Shown here piece after piece: positions 655-34,547 of a stretch of 44,852 nt of DNA (position 1 is its first letter; each line of letters begins with the position of its first letter). The notes below the pieces were generated by a model. It ran no database searches. It was not told the origin of the DNA and was given only the letters and a program-made list of their open reading frames with translations. A program made the translations under genes and the position numbers. Source of the DNA: a virus; the IMG/VR virus record IMGVR_UViG_3300009537_000035, positions 1 to 44,852 of that record. One strand, written 5' to 3'.

Positions 655-1914
655 TTAATTTCCATAATTTTTGATGTAGTCTGAATGATTCGACCAATGA
701 TAATAACGAACAGTATCTAACAAGTGAGTGAGGGTCCCGGTCTTTTTATCAATGGTACCGTCTGCCAGTACTTGCACATATCTTAAATCCTCAATAGTGT
801 ATTTACACTCTCTGTCAACTTTACAATCAAGGTGTTTAGCAAATAAACTGTTTGTTAACATACGACTATTTCTCAATGCTGGGTTACTTCCGGGTATGTT
901 AAAATTTTGGCTGGGAATTTCCAGCTCTTTTTGAATAACCCTAAAATAGTTTAAATTATCCTTTACCAATGCTGAGTTATTATTTCCGCTTGCATCACCA
1001 TTGACAATAAAATCAAAGTCTGTCATTCCCAAACTCGCTTTGATATGGTCGCACAAATCATAAATATTTGAGTTTGAGATTCTAAACTCCTTAGCTGTTC
1101 TTATCCAGCTCTTATCAAATGCGTGCTGGTGACATGTGGCTGTAATAGGGTCAACATTGAAGTCAAACGAAACATACAAAGGCAAATCCTGAGTTAATTT
1201 ATACCCGTCACAGATATTCTTGTCAGAGAAAGCCCACACAAAAGGTTTACCCCTGTCATCGAATGCCTCAGCCATATAAAGCTCGTTGAAAATCTCATCC
1301 GGGAGGGTTGCCCTTGCATCTTCCAGCTCCTCCATTGAGAAAACTTTTCCTTCCACAGCATCCAAGGCAGTTAACTTAAAATGTTCCCAGTTTGGATTTT
1401 CTTTTTTCTCAGCTTTCCTTGCTAGTTCCCAAACCCAATTATCCCGGCCTTTTACATTTCCGATAATTTTTAACTTACCCTTGGTTTTTGTCAGAGTGGA
1501 ACGGATTGCATAAAACACCTCTTTTTTACAACGTGTGGCCTCATCAATAACACATCCGATCACATCATCACCGTAAAGGTTGTCCGGGTTTTCTCCTGAC
1601 TTAAATTGAATAACGACACCGTTTAATAAAACAATCCTTAACTCACTTTCATTGAACTTTGCGAAGTACGGGTATGAAGTTTTAATGAATCTCTTTAAAC
1701 GCCTGAATGCAATTTTAGATTGCTGGTAAACCGGAGCCACCCACCAGCAATTATCCCCAAGTTTACCCTGTAATGCTTTTTCAAATATCCAAACAAGACA
1801 CCCTATTGTTTTGCCTGATTTAGTACTTGCCTCTACGACTGTGTACCTGTATATAGAATCAACAAACGCCTTTTGTTTGGTATAGAGGTATGGCCTTATA
1901 TAAGAAATGTTCAT
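655..1914 (-). CDS. terL: Terminase large subunit
   Basis: A 419-aa packaging motor that hydrolyses ATP to fill the prohead and cuts the concatemer. The ATPase domain shows Walker A at residues 28-36 (EASTKSGKT), Walker B at 121-125 (CVIDE) and a coupling-like IIGN at 150-153. The nuclease domain shows acidic residues D251 (SFDFNVD), D307 (NGDASG) and D400 (LLDTVRYY). Length is typical of the family. The small subunit lies 17 nt upstream. The genes sit far from the portal in linear coordinates, next to the modification cassette. Confidence 0.92.
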   Translation of the reverse strand: MNISYIRPYLYTKQKAFVDSIYRYTVVEASTKSGKTIGCLVWIFEKALQGKLGDNCWWVAPVYQQSKIAFRRLKRFIKTSYPYFAKFNESELRIVLLNGVVIQFKSGENPDNLYGDDVIGCVIDEATRCKKEVFYAIRSTLTKTKGKLKIIGNVKGRDNWVWELARKAEKKENPNWEHFKLTALDAVEGKVFSMEELEDARATLPDEIFNELYMAEAFDDRGKPFVWAFSDKNICDGYKLTQDLPLYVSFDFNVDPITATCHQHAFDKSWIRTAKEFRISNSNIYDLCDHIKASLGMTDFDFIVNGDASGNNNSALVKDNLNYFRVIQKELEIPSQNFNIPGSNPALRNSRMLTNSLFAKHLDCKVDRECKYTIEDLRYVQVLADGTIDKKTGTLTHLLDTVRYYHWSNHSDYIKNYGN

Positions 1915-1931
1915 AAATCGACCCTAATTGA

Positions 1932-2411
1932 TTATTCCTTTTCGTCCTCATGTTCTAACGCTCCAAGGTCTAACGTTACTGTAATATCTCCCTTTGGTGC
2001 CTCTCTCTCAGCAGCATTCCACTCCTCTTTTTTCCTATGTCTCAACCATCCAAAACAAGCCAGTGTATCAGGTACCACATGCTTTTTGATTTTCCTTACT
2101 GTAGTTGTGGACGTTGACCCGTCCTTGCTAACATTTACCTCTGTGATTGTTTCCTCATAGTCATATCCTAAAGCTCTCCTGTATAGAGCCGATTCAACCG
2201 CTAAGTCAGCGACCTCCTTAGAGGATAAGATCATTTTTTTAAAATCCGGGTAGGTTTTTAATAACTTCTTTAGCGTAGTTGTACCACAACCCAAATGCTG
2301 TGCAATTATTTTATTATCCGCTCCGTTACGACAAAGGGCTAAGATTGTTTCCTCTTTGCCCTTAACGTATTTGTCATAGATATTTTCCTTTGGTCTCCCG
2401 GTAACAGCCAT
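1932..2411 (-). CDS. terS: Terminase small subunit
   Basis: A 159-aa protein whose N-terminal part resembles a helix-turn-helix (about residues 22-58, with IIAQHLGCGTTTLKKLLK), followed by a helical segment and an acidic tail. Small terminase subunits recognise the packaging site and form a ring that loads the large subunit. Its place immediately before the large terminase supports the call. The start MAVTGRPKENIYDKY is typical of this family, many of which begin with a GRP motif. Confidence 0.8.
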   Translation of the reverse strand: MAVTGRPKENIYDKYVKGKEETILALCRNGADNKIIAQHLGCGTTTLKKLLKTYPDFKKMILSSKEVADLAVESALYRRALGYDYEETITEVNVSKDGSTSTTTVRKIKKHVVPDTLACFGWLRHRKKEEWNAAEREAPKGDITVTLDLGALEHEDEKE

Positions 2412-2419
2412 AAATCAAA

Positions 2420-3196
2420 TCAGTTTTTTGCAGCTTTTACAACTTCGTTACAAATATCGATCATTTTACTGAAAGCAACTGTATTTGATTTTATATTATA
2501 AACTTTCTTAACCGCTGTCATCGTTTTGACAAACTCCTCAAATTTACCTACTACCAAGGCTGTGTTTGAGTCAATCTTTTGTTTTTCCAGTATTGCTAAA
2601 ATCTTTTGCACATCCTTAGCACGTGACTCAATAAACAAAAATTTCATTTCAGTGAGTTCAATATCTGCGTCCGTTATGGTTGTGATATTTAGCTTTTCAA
2701 TATCAATAAAATGCAAATCGTTAATCCCTGAGTATTTTTTATTCTCAATAGATTTGATCTCCTCAAATATGTCTTTTAACATCTGTACATCATCTTTACC
2801 CACTAGGGAGTTATGACTCAACTGGTATGCAATTTGCCTGTCCTTTGAAACCTCATCAATGTACATGATCAACACATATTCCAGTTTTGCTTTTATCGCT
2901 GCCTTTATTCTGTGGTTACCTGATAGGATTAAATATTTGCTGTCCTCTGTTCTTTTCATGGAAAAAGGTAACTGAGACAAAAAACCATCCTCAGCAATAT
3001 TACTAACCAGTTTATCCAGTACTGCCTTATCCATGTACCGGGCATTTTTCTGCAACAATACACAATCCTCAACCGGGTTAACATATGCCAGTTTGTATGG
3101 AGTTATCAATTCATTATGACTCTCCAGCTGGGTCCTAATAGAATTCACTTTTGTTTCATCGATAATTGCCGGGTTTACTTTTTCTTGGTTTTCCAT
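2420..3196 (-). CDS. ParB-like nuclease-fold protein
   Basis: A 258-aa protein with a ParB/Srx-type domain at about residues 35-140: a VEDCVLLQKNARYMDKAVLDKLV stretch split over residues 41-64, then the signature SGNHRIKAA and the helical AYQLSHNSLVGKDD. No partner ParA or classical ParB DNA-binding region is evident. In phages this fold is often encoded beside DNA methyltransferases and may bind DNA or CTP, or act as a nuclease. The start overlaps the end of the methyltransferase gene by 22 nt, so the two are likely translated together. The C-terminal half is unassigned. Confidence 0.75.
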   Translation of the reverse strand: MENQEKVNPAIIDETKVNSIRTQLESHNELITPYKLAYVNPVEDCVLLQKNARYMDKAVLDKLVSNIAEDGFLSQLPFSMKRTEDSKYLILSGNHRIKAAIKAKLEYVLIMYIDEVSKDRQIAYQLSHNSLVGKDDVQMLKDIFEEIKSIENKKYSGINDLHFIDIEKLNITTITDADIELTEMKFLFIESRAKDVQKILAILEKQKIDSNTALVVGKFEEFVKTMTAVKKVYNIKSNTVAFSKMIDICNEVVKAAKN

Positions 3197-4476
3197 ATCT
3201 GATAATTTTCAATTAATGACAGGTTATTAAATTTTGATGTGTATATAAGTTTATCCTTAAACCTCTTTTCTAGGGTATATACACCCCTATACTTCATTGA
3301 AACCGCCTTAGTAGTGTAAACGGTTGTTTTAAGTCCTTCGTAATAATTTCCGAGCTTACGGCACACTGTATGTCTTACCTCATTTGACTTGGTAAGCATA
3401 ATAAGCAACTTACTCAATTTAGGCACATTGCTGAACACTACAAAATCACTCTGAACAAAAATCTCATCTATTGTGCTTAGGGTTTTGCTGAATGATGTAA
3501 ACCCAAACGCTCTACCGTCGGCAAAAAAAATGAGACCCATATCTCCTCCGGTTGTATAATTCACTTTTGAGCCCATGAAAAACGCTTTGAAGTAATTTAT
3601 ATCTTTTACCGGGTAAAGATCACAGGTTATCTTCGTATCATCTTTAAACTCAAAGTCAACTGGTATAACTTTAATTTTTGAATCCAGTACCTGAGAATCT
3701 CGCTCAATGTAGTATTTTTTACGGCCTTTTAAACTGGAGTAAATAAATACCGGGTGCTTACCCTGTCCCAAATTAACAGAACCAACCTTAAACTTTGTAA
3801 TATTTTTCCAGTCCTTATCTGAGTATATGATCTGTTTCCCGGACTCTAACAACTCCTCAAATAATATCCCTGCATCTTTTGGGTCAAACATATTGTACTT
3901 CGCTCGCTCATAGTCAAAGGATTTCTCTACAAAATTAAATATCTTTTCATATCCAGCCTTGTAAGTTGGTGGGAATGATATACCTACGCTATTCGCTGGC
4001 GTATTCTTTAAATGGTCGACGAAGTCACAGAACGAAAACGAGGCTATCTGAAAATCAAACGCCCCTTTCTCTAACTTATTGATACTGTTCAAATAATACT
4101 TTTGAGACTGATCAACCCATGAGTCAAAGAACATTTTTTGGTAGTCATTCTTTCGGTCAACAAACTCGCTTATTTTGATTGCATACATGACCTGAATCAA
4201 TTTTTTATATTTGCTATCACTCCAGTTTGCAAATATTTGTTTCAATTCAGGATTAACAATGTCAACAAATGTCTCCTCATTGAGTAATATGTCAGCTATT
4301 AACTTTGAATAAAGGGAAACATCATTTGAGTGTACCTTATACCCTAACTTAGAACATACTTTATCAATAGTAAAGTTACCTGAACATCCTATGTAAATAC
4401 TCTTTATTCCTTTTGCTTTAGCGATTATATCCTGAATAAGAATCCTAACCTCTTTGGGTGTGCTACCTATAAACAT
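3175..4476 (-). CDS. Putative DNA adenine methyltransferase with Mom-like C-terminal region
   Basis: A 433-aa protein. Residues 27-34 (IYIGCSGNF) followed by HSNDVSLYS look like a SAM-binding motif I region. Residues 167-172 (SFPPTY) stand where amino-methyltransferases have DPPY. This resembles phage proteins annotated as antirestriction adenine methyltransferases. The last 140 or so residues (DFVVFSN, KLSKLLIMLTKSNEV, then SMKYRGVYTLEKR) recall GNAT-type Mom-like base modification enzymes, so this may be a two-domain enzyme. That part is inference. It overlaps the ParB-like gene and follows a DUF488-like gene by 16 nt, suggesting one DNA-modification operon. Confidence 0.55.
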   Translation of the reverse strand: MFIGSTPKEVRILIQDIIAKAKGIKSIYIGCSGNFTIDKVCSKLGYKVHSNDVSLYSKLIADILLNEETFVDIVNPELKQIFANWSDSKYKKLIQVMYAIKISEFVDRKNDYQKMFFDSWVDQSQKYYLNSINKLEKGAFDFQIASFSFCDFVDHLKNTPANSVGISFPPTYKAGYEKIFNFVEKSFDYERAKYNMFDPKDAGILFEELLESGKQIIYSDKDWKNITKFKVGSVNLGQGKHPVFIYSSLKGRKKYYIERDSQVLDSKIKVIPVDFEFKDDTKITCDLYPVKDINYFKAFFMGSKVNYTTGGDMGLIFFADGRAFGFTSFSKTLSTIDEIFVQSDFVVFSNVPKLSKLLIMLTKSNEVRHTVCRKLGNYYEGLKTTVYTTKAVSMKYRGVYTLEKRFKDKLIYTSKFNNLSLIENYQIWKTKKK

Positions 4477-4492
4477 AATCTTTTGTTATTGG

Positions 4493-4882
4493 TTAAAATA
4501 GTTTGATTTGTTCCGCATCTTTCGGCTTTTCCATTTTTCCGAGTTCTTTTACTTCTATCCTCAGGTTAAGAATAAACCATTTTGCAACTAATTGTCTATG
4601 ACAAAACTCTCCTTCCGGTTCATGACAAAGCAAAACAACATCTTTACCTTTTGATAATACCTCCAGTTCATTTAATACGGTTACCGGGTTTATGGGTTTC
4701 AAAAGACCTTTAAATTTCTCTGTATATTCTCCGGGGGGTAGATGTAACCAACTGTAATTTGGTGAAAGTTTTGGGTACTTAGCTCCTTCGTAGTACTTCG
4801 CATAACAGGATATTGATACTGGGAATATACCAGCCTCTCTATACTTCTTAACGTTTGCAAAATTTCCGGTGTATAATTTCAT
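4493..4882 (-). CDS. DUF488-like protein
   Basis: A 129-aa protein with the DUF488 signature: YTGNFANVKKYREAGIFPVS at the N-terminus and VVLLCHEPEGEFCHRQLVA at about residues 82-100, carrying the conserved Cys-His-Glu and Phe-Cys-His-Arg. The biochemical role of DUF488 is not settled. Here it opens the probable modification operon with the methyltransferase and ParB-like genes. The 162-nt gap upstream (4883-5044) contains no other gene I can support and only weak promoter-like sequence. Confidence 0.7.
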   Translation of the reverse strand: MKLYTGNFANVKKYREAGIFPVSISCYAKYYEGAKYPKLSPNYSWLHLPPGEYTEKFKGLLKPINPVTVLNELEVLSKGKDVVLLCHEPEGEFCHRQLVAKWFILNLRIEVKELGKMEKPKDAEQIKLF

Positions 4883-32034: not shown

Positions 32035-32511
32035 TTAAATTTTCTCAGCTATAATCATAAAAGAGTGGTTAAAATCTACACCTGAAACCATAACATTTTT
32101 CATTCCATTTTCATTTAAAAAATCCCTCAATACTTCGGGTACCATAACATGTTTATGTTTTCTATTATTCCAAGGTCTCCAGTATTTTTGTGAATAGTCA
32201 GGCAAATATAAGAATAAAATTCCACCTGATTTTATTAATGAAATCCACTCACTCAAAGTTTCTACCCAACTATCACAATGCTCCAAACAATGACTTGAAA
32301 AAACATAATCCTGAGTTTCTTTACCGGGTAACATGTCACCTATTTCAATGCCTTTTGCAAGTGGGAGTTTCCACTCAGGACGGGAATAACCAATATCAAC
32401 ACCAATACCTTTACATACTTTTATTGCAAATGGAAAAGCAAATTTTGAAGCCCAGCCCTGAGACTCCCATTCAGGATATTTTTCACCTTCAAACTCAATA
32501 AATTTTAACAT
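32035..32511 (-). CDS. SAM-dependent methyltransferase
   Basis: A 158-aa class I methyltransferase: motif I GIGVDIG (35-41), a motif III-like DYVFSSHCLEHCDSWVETLS, and a strand IV/V segment SGGILFLYLPD. It is short, near the minimal Methyltransf_11 domain. It overlaps the three-domain glycosyltransferase by 7 nt, so it may methylate the sugar those enzymes add. That is inference. Confidence 0.75.
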   Translation of the reverse strand: MLKFIEFEGEKYPEWESQGWASKFAFPFAIKVCKGIGVDIGYSRPEWKLPLAKGIEIGDMLPGKETQDYVFSSHCLEHCDSWVETLSEWISLIKSGGILFLYLPDYSQKYWRPWNNRKHKHVMVPEVLRDFLNENGMKNVMVSGVDFNHSFMIIAEKI

Positions 32512-34547
32512 AATTCAACAGTCTTTATTTTTAAATATTCTGTAGGATTTACGGCCTCATCTTTTCCTAGGGAGGAGTGCAAACCGTTTTCTCCGAAATG
32601 CTGGACAAAACTTGTTTTAGTCACAATAAATGTTTTCAATATTTCACAAACTTTCCAGTCCCATGATGTATGTGTTTTTATTTTATTTATTGAACCTAAA
32701 ATGATTTTAACCATTTCTTTACTGAGTAACATGGAAGCACCCGGACAATGCCCGGTAAAAACAACCTCGTCATTTTCGCTTATTTGTTTTGACTTCACTA
32801 AATTATTTGATCGATACAATGAAACTGGCAAATTATATTTCTCAAAATAATATATTAAAACATCGATAAAATTTGAATCATGGAAACAATCATTATCCGT
32901 TAAATACATAAAATTTTTATCCTTTTTAATAAAATCATTCATTTGAACAACCCTCTGTTTTTCGATACCAATTTTATCAATTTCATCATTGTAAATATTT
33001 AATGTCGCGCCCTGTTTTGTTTTCTCAATTTGATCGATGCAAATTTTTGTTATTTCCGGTCTTTTGAATGTTGTTACATAAATATCAATATCCGAGCTAC
33101 TTATTTTTTTCTCAATTACAATTTTTTTTTTAAAATCAACCTCGCTAAAAGAATTGATCTTAATCATTTTTGGATAGTTAAACCCTGTAGTTGTATCAAT
33201 GTAATAAAATGCCTCACAATTCTTTAAAGTGAACTCATTTAAACACGCAATAATAGGACTGGTATTATATCCTATAATATATTTACATTTCGTGCTTAAA
33301 ATACCAATTTCTAACGTGGATAAATTATGATCTCTTGTACATGGAAAACCCTCAATTCTATCGGTTGTAATAATTCTATGTGAATCTCTATGTTTATTGA
33401 CAAAATTTAAAATATCCAGTTTATTGTATGCAGCTTGTCCCGACATTGCACGACTATTAATTACTAAAATATCATACTCAAATTTATTTGAATCTATAAT
33501 ATTTTCATGTTCAAATTTCCAATCTTTCTGAATAGGATTTTGAACACCTATTTTCTTAGAAAGCATTTCAAAATAATGGTAATAAAATTCATTTAAAATC
33601 TCTCTGTTTGCATGAGTATAATAAAACCTATTGTCTCCTATCCAGCAGTCAATAGATATGCCTTTCCTGACACTTAATTCTGATAAAATTATTCTCCCTG
33701 CATATTTCCCGATGTGTTTCTCCAGTTCATAGAAATTTGACAATTTTGAATTGATATAAAACCAAAAAATATAATTTGGGTATAACTCGCAAAGTCTCCT
33801 TAGATATTGAATGAAAAAAATACCGTCACCTAATCTCATAGCGTTATGAAAATAAAACGTTTTTGTTTCTTGTATAGGTTTAGGTGTATTCATACCAAAG
33901 TTTTCTAATTTCCTTTTATTTAACGTTTCTGTGTCTTTACCCCAATTGTTATTTTTCCGAGCTGTTTCATCCATGTTGCCAGCATAACCAATATGCTCAT
34001 GTTTTATGATAACCTGATTAAAATATTTCTGTTTACCCCTCATTCTTGCAACCTCCATAAACTCTACATCACACATCAAAGTTTCATAAATCGGATTATA
34101 CAAATATCTGTCACGTTCAAAATATTTCTTTCCGCAAATTACAAGGGTGTTAAGATTTGAACCTTGTAATCCGTCATTAAACCACAAAACACCGTCCGTA
34201 TCAGGATAGTGTTTTTTCATGTTGTCACGAATGATTTGATCGTAACCTTTTACTTTGGGTACCATGTCATCTGATGCCAGTAACACAATATCCCATTCCT
34301 TATATTTGTCTAAGTCCCTGTTAATAGCATGAATCTTATTTTTTGATACACCGAAAGTAAAGTTTAAATTTTTGTAGGTCTGTAGTTTCTCAATAGCCCT
34401 CAAATTATTCATTTGATCATCATCTTTGTCGAGTGTAATCTCAAACAACATCATATCAATATCACTCGCTAAAGAATAATATAAATCGAGTACTTTAAAA
34501 AATTTGTCTTTTCTCCCTCTAGTGGGAAATTTTACCAATATTCTCAT
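32505..34547 (-). CDS. Three-domain glycosyltransferase
   Basis: A 680-aa protein. Residues 1-220 resemble a GT-A enzyme (KFPTRGRKDKFF, then ASDDMVPKVKGYD and the acidic DVEFMEVARM). Residues about 225-480 resemble a GT-B-type domain (FHNAMRLGDGIFFIQYLRRL, a GDGI motif). Residues about 490-680 resemble a GT2-like domain (DIYVTTFKRPEI, a DND metal motif, GHCPGASMLLSK). Multi-domain sugar transferases are rare in small phage genomes. Possible targets are virion proteins, modified DNA or host polysaccharide. It overlaps both neighbours by 4-7 nt. Confidence 0.7.
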   Translation of the reverse strand: MRILVKFPTRGRKDKFFKVLDLYYSLASDIDMMLFEITLDKDDDQMNNLRAIEKLQTYKNLNFTFGVSKNKIHAINRDLDKYKEWDIVLLASDDMVPKVKGYDQIIRDNMKKHYPDTDGVLWFNDGLQGSNLNTLVICGKKYFERDRYLYNPIYETLMCDVEFMEVARMRGKQKYFNQVIIKHEHIGYAGNMDETARKNNNWGKDTETLNKRKLENFGMNTPKPIQETKTFYFHNAMRLGDGIFFIQYLRRLCELYPNYIFWFYINSKLSNFYELEKHIGKYAGRIILSELSVRKGISIDCWIGDNRFYYTHANREILNEFYYHYFEMLSKKIGVQNPIQKDWKFEHENIIDSNKFEYDILVINSRAMSGQAAYNKLDILNFVNKHRDSHRIITTDRIEGFPCTRDHNLSTLEIGILSTKCKYIIGYNTSPIIACLNEFTLKNCEAFYYIDTTTGFNYPKMIKINSFSEVDFKKKIVIEKKISSSDIDIYVTTFKRPEITKICIDQIEKTKQGATLNIYNDEIDKIGIEKQRVVQMNDFIKKDKNFMYLTDNDCFHDSNFIDVLIYYFEKYNLPVSLYRSNNLVKSKQISENDEVVFTGHCPGASMLLSKEMVKIILGSINKIKTHTSWDWKVCEILKTFIVTKTSFVQHFGENGLHSSLGKDEAVNPTEYLKIKTVELC

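What the first reader, a model, noticed from the sequence alone, without database searches (positions are those of the whole stretch)
2420..4882. ParB-like / methyltransferase-Mom-like / DUF488 cassette
Three genes overlap or lie within 16 nt: a DUF488-like protein, a 433-aa protein with a SAM-type motif, SFPPTY in place of DPPY and a Mom-like end, and a ParB-fold protein. The combination looks like a DNA base-modification pathway for evading restriction. The possible methyltransferase-acyltransferase fusion and the DUF488 partner are not a standard set I know.
Basis: partly seen in the sequence, partly recalled or inferred. Interest (0 to 1): 0.75.

Follow-up and report, generated by a model that had tools for sequence, protein, structure and literature searches.

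The report
Phage three-gene DNA-modification cassette
This virus carries three genes that travel together in many unrelated bacterial viruses and that probably decorate the viral DNA chemically to hide it from bacterial restriction enzymes; one partner ends in a tail that looks made to grip the host's replication clamp, which makes the mechanism testable.

Summary
At 2420-4882 (minus strand) lie DUF488 (129 aa), a 433-aa fusion and a ParB-fold protein, 16 nt apart or overlapping by 22 nt, directly upstream of the terminase genes. Pfam already has models for the domains: DAM-like-phage1 (2e-42), GNAT-phage-like (2e-23), DUF488-N3a (1e-7). AlphaFold models match Dam, GNATs (Mom among them, not the best) and CTP/CDP-bound ParB. 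The set is not chance: 148 related loci form 39 clusters at 60% identity. ParB adjoins the fusion in 38/38 testable clusters and DUF488 lies nearby in 28/35, against 0/80 control loci around terminases. (1) SAM-binding residues are conserved, but the D/N of DPPY is F or Y in 29/39 clusters, so plain adenine methylation is unlikely. (2) The DUF488 tail ends in a sliding-clamp-binding motif (window QIKLF) in 19/29 clusters, against 1 expected. (3) Some phages add a SAM synthetase. (4) In Prevotella prophages an amidoligase is added and the Dam-like site is degenerate, with GNAT, ParB and DUF488 kept. Best reading: a replication-coupled DNA base hypermodification system, chemistry unproven. Mom membership is not supported by sequence. 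No characterised member was found.

The parts
4493..4882 (-). DUF488 protein (129 aa), rhodanese/phosphatase-like, with catalytic-type C86, E88, C94-H95-R96
   Evidence: PF22751 DUF488-N3a 1.2e-7, PF04343 5e-4; T5, P41, C86, C94, H95, R96 and E113 invariant in 33 cassette members
4496..4510 (-). C-terminal pentapeptide QIKLF, putative beta-sliding-clamp-binding motif
   Evidence: sequence; motif in 19/29 cluster representatives vs 0.97 by shuffling and 0.5% of other ORFs; consensus QL(S/D)LF from PMC11139829
3175..4476 (-). Dam-like MTase / GNAT fusion (433 aa)
   Evidence: phrog_7858 2.4e-117; PF22555 + PF22559; AlphaFold mean pLDDT 89.9
3715..4473 (-). Dam-like (SAM-binding) domain, aa 2-254
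   Evidence: PF22555 2.3e-42; Foldseek to E. coli Dam 4rtj 9.7e-6, 2g1p 1.7e-5
3961..3978 (-). motif IV S-F-P-P-T-Y (aa 167-172), where amino-MTases have D/N/S-P-P-Y/F
   Evidence: position 168: F22 Y7 N4 S2 of 39 cluster representatives
3178..3606 (-). GNAT domain, aa 291-433, with near-invariant G325, T384, R397, G398, Y412
   Evidence: PF22559 1.8e-23; Foldseek to GNATs 5jq4 1.1e-4, Mu Mom 8bv8 6.1e-4; conservation
2420..3196 (-). ParB-fold protein (258 aa) with intact nucleotide-binding S-G-N-H-R96
   Evidence: phrog_7405 1.4e-62; AlphaFold pLDDT 85.3, Foldseek to ParB-CDP 6sdk 1.7e-5; G93, H95, R96 invariant in 43
1932..2411 (-). terminase small subunit, next gene downstream (context)
   Evidence: phrog_309 1.6e-26
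655..1914 (-). terminase large subunit (context)
   Evidence: phrog_2 4.8e-32; a TerL-type gene lies 1.1-1.9 kb downstream of the fusion gene in 15 of 39 clusters

Best explanation
A phage DNA base-hypermodification cassette that protects phage DNA from host restriction. Shown: three conserved linked genes; SAM-binding Dam-like fold, GNAT fold, NTP-binding ParB fold, DUF488 with its Cys-His-Arg site. Inferred: ParB loads or positions the complex on DNA in an NTP-dependent way; the Dam-like domain flips or holds the target base and uses SAM for a step other than ordinary N6-methylation; the GNAT domain then acylates the amine so made or exposed, giving a bulky base; DUF488, through its clamp-binding tail, is tethered to the replication clamp, so that modification (or clean-up at nicks and ends) is coupled to replication. 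Confidence that the target is DNA and the purpose anti-restriction about 0.6; that clamp binding is real about 0.65; the order of chemistry is a guess.
For: Conserved set: ParB within 1 kb (mostly overlapping) in 38/38 testable clusters; DUF488 in 28/35 (16 within 1 kb), versus 0/80 terminase-centred control loci with any of the three. Folds: Dam, GNAT, ParB. SAM-site residues C31, G33, D52, D151 kept in about 35 of 39 clusters while motif IV D/N is F/Y in 29. SAM synthetase genes beside the cassette in FP_Brigit-type phages and a Prevotella locus. Alternative amidoligase head on the same GNAT/ParB/DUF488 set. Clamp motif at the DUF488 C-terminus: 19/29 vs 0.97 expected; DUF488 hits of host genomes outside the cassette 1/16 at most. 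A ParB-like ATPase assists DNA base modification in Dpd systems (PMC12839542).
Against: No modified base is known for any carrier phage that I could find. The Dam-like domain has lost the residue that binds the target amine in most members, so it could be a non-enzymatic scaffold. GNATs more often acetylate proteins or small molecules. The window's tail QIKLF has Ile at position 2 and Lys at 3, not the strongest consensus. One large clade (Deltaproteobacteria-type, cluster L095) has DUF488 without the clamp motif. Seven of 35 clusters show no DUF488 in the fetched stretch.
Confidence: 0.55

Rival explanations
1. An ordinary anti-restriction DNA N6-adenine methyltransferase; GNAT, ParB and DUF488 are accessories.
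For: Best solved matches of the N-terminal part include E. coli Dam; Pfam names it DNA Adenine Methylase-like; 4 of 39 clusters keep N at position 168.
Against: F or Y replaces D/N in 29 of 39 clusters, the window among them; in amidoligase-fused relatives the whole SAM site is degenerate yet the cassette persists.
Confidence: 0.12
2. A host-takeover enzyme: the GNAT acylates a host protein or RNA, with the Dam-like domain as a nucleic-acid-binding scaffold.
For: Phage GNATs that acetylate host RNA polymerase are known (PMC7824862); best GNAT fold hits are acetyltransferases other than Mom.
Against: Constant ParB partner, DUF488 with a replication-clamp-like tail, and nearby SAM synthetase in some phages all point to DNA.
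Confidence: 0.15
3. A packaging or DNA-end-processing accessory: ParB plus the fusion mark or prepare the packaging substrate, DUF488 removes end groups.
For: The cassette lies directly before TerS-TerL in the window and FP_Brigit, and a TerL-type gene follows in 15 of 39 clusters. From memory, Burroughs and Aravind 2023 (10.1093/nargab/lqad029, not held) predicted DNA-end processing for some DUF488-clade enzymes.
Against: In Gordonia and Mycobacterium phages the cassette is not beside the terminase; 80 terminase loci of related TerLs lack it.
Confidence: 0.1
4. Unrelated genes that merely sit together in this genome.
For: None beyond the limits of annotation.
Against: Co-occurrence across 39 clusters from several bacterial phyla against 0/80 controls.
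Confidence: 0.01

Closest known systems
Pfam DAM-like-phage1 (PF22555) + GNAT-phage-like (PF22559) architecture; PHROG 7858
   Same: The window protein matches both models in the same order and PHROG 7858 over its full length, as Mycobacterium, Gordonia, Faecalibacterium and Microbacterium phage proteins match both Pfam models.
   Different: The families are catalogued by domain name only; PHROG 7858 is 'unknown function'. I found no experimental work on any member.
Phage Mu Mom (adenine-modifying GNAT)
   Same: GNAT fold; Mom (PDB 8bv8) is among the Foldseek hits at 6e-4; similar proposed purpose.
   Different: No significant sequence relation; Mu Mom is a 241-aa protein without a Dam-like domain, and no ParB or DUF488 is annotated beside it.
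E. coli Dam / D12-class N6-adenine methyltransferase
   Same: Fold and SAM-binding motif positions.
   Different: DPPY catalytic residue replaced by F or Y; fused to GNAT.
DpdB/DndB-type ParB-like ATPases of DNA-modification systems
   Same: ParB-fold protein in an operon with DNA-modifying enzymes (PMC12839542; PMC12704722).
   Different: Partner enzymes are TGT (DpdA) or phosphorothioation enzymes; different ParB family (phrog_7405).
Amidoligase_2 - DAM-like-phage2 - GNAT proteins of Prevotella prophages (phrog_2443)
   Same: Same GNAT family, adjacent ParB and nearby DUF488.
   Different: N-terminal amidoligase added; Dam-like SAM site degenerate.

Membership tests
Mom family DNA-modifying GNAT | GNAT fold | tested here: met
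   PF22559; Foldseek GNAT hits
Mom family DNA-modifying GNAT | significant sequence relation to Mu Mom | tested here: not met
   hhalign probability about 1%, E 0.04-0.08
Mom family DNA-modifying GNAT | produces a modified adenine in DNA | not testable with these tools
   needs LC-MS of DNA
Dam / D12-class N6-adenine MTase | Dam-like Rossmann fold | tested here: met
Dam / D12-class N6-adenine MTase | SAM-binding motif I glycine/F and acidic motif II and III residues | tested here: met
   G33, F35, D52, D151
Dam / D12-class N6-adenine MTase | (D/N/S)PP(Y/F) motif IV | tested here: not met
   window FPPTY; F/Y in 29 of 39 clusters
ParB-CTPase fold protein | ParB N-domain fold | tested here: met
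   Foldseek 6sdk 1.7e-5, probability 1.0; Pfam hit below cut-off
ParB-CTPase fold protein | P-motif arginine needed for NTP binding | tested here: met
   R96 invariant in 43; role of this Arg from PMC12704722
ParB-CTPase fold protein | binds CTP, ATP or GTP | not testable with these tools
   biochemistry
DUF488 (rhodanese/phosphatase-like, PF22751) | above curated cut-off and catalytic Cys retained | tested here: met
   32.4 bits vs 27; C94-H95-R96 invariant
beta-sliding-clamp-binding protein | QL(S/D)LF-type peptide in an exposed place | tested here: met
   C-terminal in 19/29 clusters; consensus; window QIKLF is a near-consensus form
beta-sliding-clamp-binding protein | binds DnaN | not testable with these tools
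   needs ITC, pull-down or co-structure

The most novel reading that the evidence does not exclude
A clamp-tethered, two-step DNA hypermodification with interchangeable heads: the Dam-like domain no longer methylates but transfers another part of SAM (for example the aminocarboxypropyl group) to a base, leaving an amine that the fused GNAT acylates; in Prevotella phages an ATP-dependent amidoligase replaces the SAM step; ParB loads the complex and DUF488 ties it to the replication clamp. That would be a new kind of DNA base chemistry coupled to replication.
Probability: 0.15. Interest if true: 0.88.

Novelty: new variant of a known kind. Interest (0 to 1): 0.6.

Why it matters
The cassette is widespread (phages and prophages of Actinobacteria, Deltaproteobacteria, Bacteroidota, Firmicutes, Chloroflexi) and, as far as I could find, no member has been characterised. 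If it modifies DNA, it adds an unknown base to the list of phage defences against restriction, and cultured carriers exist for a direct test. The clamp-binding tail would be a simple way to couple DNA modification to replication, and the altered catalytic motif predicts chemistry other than adenine methylation.

Tried and rejected
Single-sequence scan of viral contigs found nothing, so an alignment was used. Searches of solved structures by sequence gave no relative. Kinship with Mom by profile comparison was tested and not supported. PADLOC gave only weak hits, so a known defence system is not indicated. NCBIfam gave nothing useful. Burroughs and Aravind 2023 (10.1093/nargab/lqad029) and Iyer 2013 (PMC3763556), which from memory treat DUF488 and phage base-modification systems, are not held, so prior prediction of this exact set could not be checked. 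Chance adjacency rejected by the terminase control. SAM depletion as the purpose is disfavoured because some carriers bring a SAM synthetase.

Full report
OBSERVATION. On the minus strand the window encodes DUF488 (4493-4882), a 433-aa protein (3175-4476) and a ParB-fold protein (2420-3196); the first two are 16 nt apart, the last two overlap by 22 nt. Next come terminase small (1932-2411, phrog_309) and large (655-1914, phrog_2) subunits. The record is a 44,852-base virus record with no larger genome held.

WHAT THE PROTEINS ARE. Pfam: the 433-aa protein is DAM-like-phage1 (aa 2-254, 2.3e-42) plus GNAT-phage-like (aa 291-433, 1.8e-23); the 129-aa protein is DUF488-N3a (1.2e-7, above cut-off); the 258-aa protein is ParB_N at 7e-5, below the Pfam cut-off but phrog_7405 at 1.4e-62. 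AlphaFold from alignments of window and viral-contig proteins gave pLDDT 89.9 for the fusion and 85.3 for ParB. Foldseek matched the fusion to 7m6b (5e-6), E. coli Dam (best 9.7e-6) and many GNATs (best 5jq4, 1.1e-4; Mu Mom 8bv8 at 6.1e-4), and ParB to CDP- and CTP-bound ParB and Noc (best 1.7e-5). Mom is thus one GNAT among many; profile comparison with Mu Mom was not significant.

CO-OCCURRENCE. tblastn found the fusion in 15 phage records (Mycobacterium, Gordonia, Faecalibacterium), with ParB beside it in all of the types examined; Microbacterium phage ValentiniPuff also has it. A DUF488 search of whole records placed weak hits near the fusion in Argie and FP_Brigit, and at the far end of the ValentiniPuff record, whose gene 1 is the fusion. 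Scans of viral contigs and of bacterial genomes gave 80 and 62 loci. With my own profiles, 148 loci fall into 39 clusters at 60% identity; ParB lies within 1 kb in 38/38 testable clusters and DUF488 in the fetched stretch in 28/35, 16 of them within 1 kb. As a control, 80 loci (750 kb) around terminases related to the window's had none of the three. Hosts named in the genome scan include Streptomyces, Deltaproteobacteria, Nitrospirae, Chloroflexi, Prevotella and Clostridium. A TerL-type gene follows the cassette in 15 of 39 clusters.

ACTIVE SITES. Across the 39 clusters the SAM-site residues C31, G33, D52 and D151 are kept in about 35, and GNAT residues G325, T384, R397, G398, Y412 in 37-38. 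Motif IV position 168, D/N/S in amino-methyltransferases, is F in 22, Y in 7, N in 4, S in 2. SAM binding is therefore likely but ordinary N6-methylation is not, in most members including the window's. ParB keeps the S-G-N-H-R nucleotide motif (R96 invariant in 43); the matching arginine is needed for NTP binding in other ParB-fold proteins (PMC12704722). DUF488 keeps C94-H95-R96.

CLAMP-BINDING TAIL. The DUF488 ends in QIKLF. In relatives the last residues are QLDLF, QLNLF, QMDMF, QLSLF, QASLL, QGSLF, QISLF, QLNLGL and similar. Counting one per cluster, 19 of 29 have Qxx[LM][FLMIW] or the hexamer form in the last 12 residues, against 0.97 (maximum 6) in 5,000 shuffles and 0.5% of other ORFs. 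The pattern was widened after a first look to admit final I and W; the narrower first pattern (final F, L or M) gave 25 of 56 nonredundant sequences against 1.4 by shuffling, with 0/92 for the fusion and 1/112 for ParB. Of 16 DUF488 hits in host genomes outside the cassette, at most one has it; for two of those 16 (L159, L161) the reading frame picked by the script may not be the DUF488 one, and many of the rest lack the Cys-His-Arg site, so this control is rough. The consensus QL(S/D)LF and its tolerances are from PMC11139829. That review notes that Trp at the last position weakens binding, so the QxKLW forms are less certain.

TWO HEADS. In Prevotella-type prophages the protein is Amidoligase_2 + DAM-like-phage2 + the same GNAT family, with adjacent ParB and DUF488 nearby; its Dam-like site has lost motifs I and IV. 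The best viral fold match of the window model is such an amidoligase protein (7.9e-27). FP_Brigit-type phages and one Prevotella locus have a SAM synthetase close by. Two loci (L011, L021) encode the Dam-like and GNAT parts as separate reading frames broken at the linker, though sequencing error cannot be excluded.

INTERPRETATION. The best account is a DNA base-hypermodification cassette with NTP-dependent loading (ParB), a SAM-using but probably non-methylating Dam-like domain, an acylating GNAT, and a clamp-tethered DUF488. Steps shown: gene set, folds, residue conservation, tail motif. Steps inferred: DNA as substrate, order of reactions, clamp binding, anti-restriction role.

NOVELTY. The domain families are already in Pfam, so the parts are catalogued; from memory they stem from work by Burroughs, Aravind and colleagues, which was not held. 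I found no experimental description. The altered motif IV, the clamp-binding tail and the amidoligase alternative are the points I would report as new observations, subject to that unread paper.

Noticed in passing
L079:4542-6713 (+): A 723-aa relative has an intein-like insert exactly inside motif IV (FPPFWK-C...HN-SG), which suggests that this site is functionally constrained.
   Followed up: partly
L148:4336-6420, L086:4234-6309, L069:4468-6516 and other Prevotella/Bacteroidales loci: Amidoligase_2 / DAM-like-phage2 / GNAT fusion proteins with the same ParB and DUF488 partners.
   Followed up: partly
L004:3149-4327, L135:3642-4982: Phage-encoded SAM synthetases near the cassette; L150:5029-5817 matches only part of the N-terminal domain.
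   Followed up: partly
Streptomyces loci such as L037, L099, L106: A second, more distant ParB paralogue lies about 1-3 kb upstream of the cassette; about 40 loci form one cluster, mostly Streptomyces where named.
   Followed up: no
window 32505-34547 (-): 680-aa protein with an N-terminal glycosyltransferase match (phrog_14945, aa 1-201), in the half of the window that also holds the tape measure gene.
   Followed up: no
window 655-1914 (-): The terminase large subunit is distantly related (27%) to that of Cyanophage S-2L, from memory the phage whose DNA carries 2-aminoadenine.
   Followed up: no
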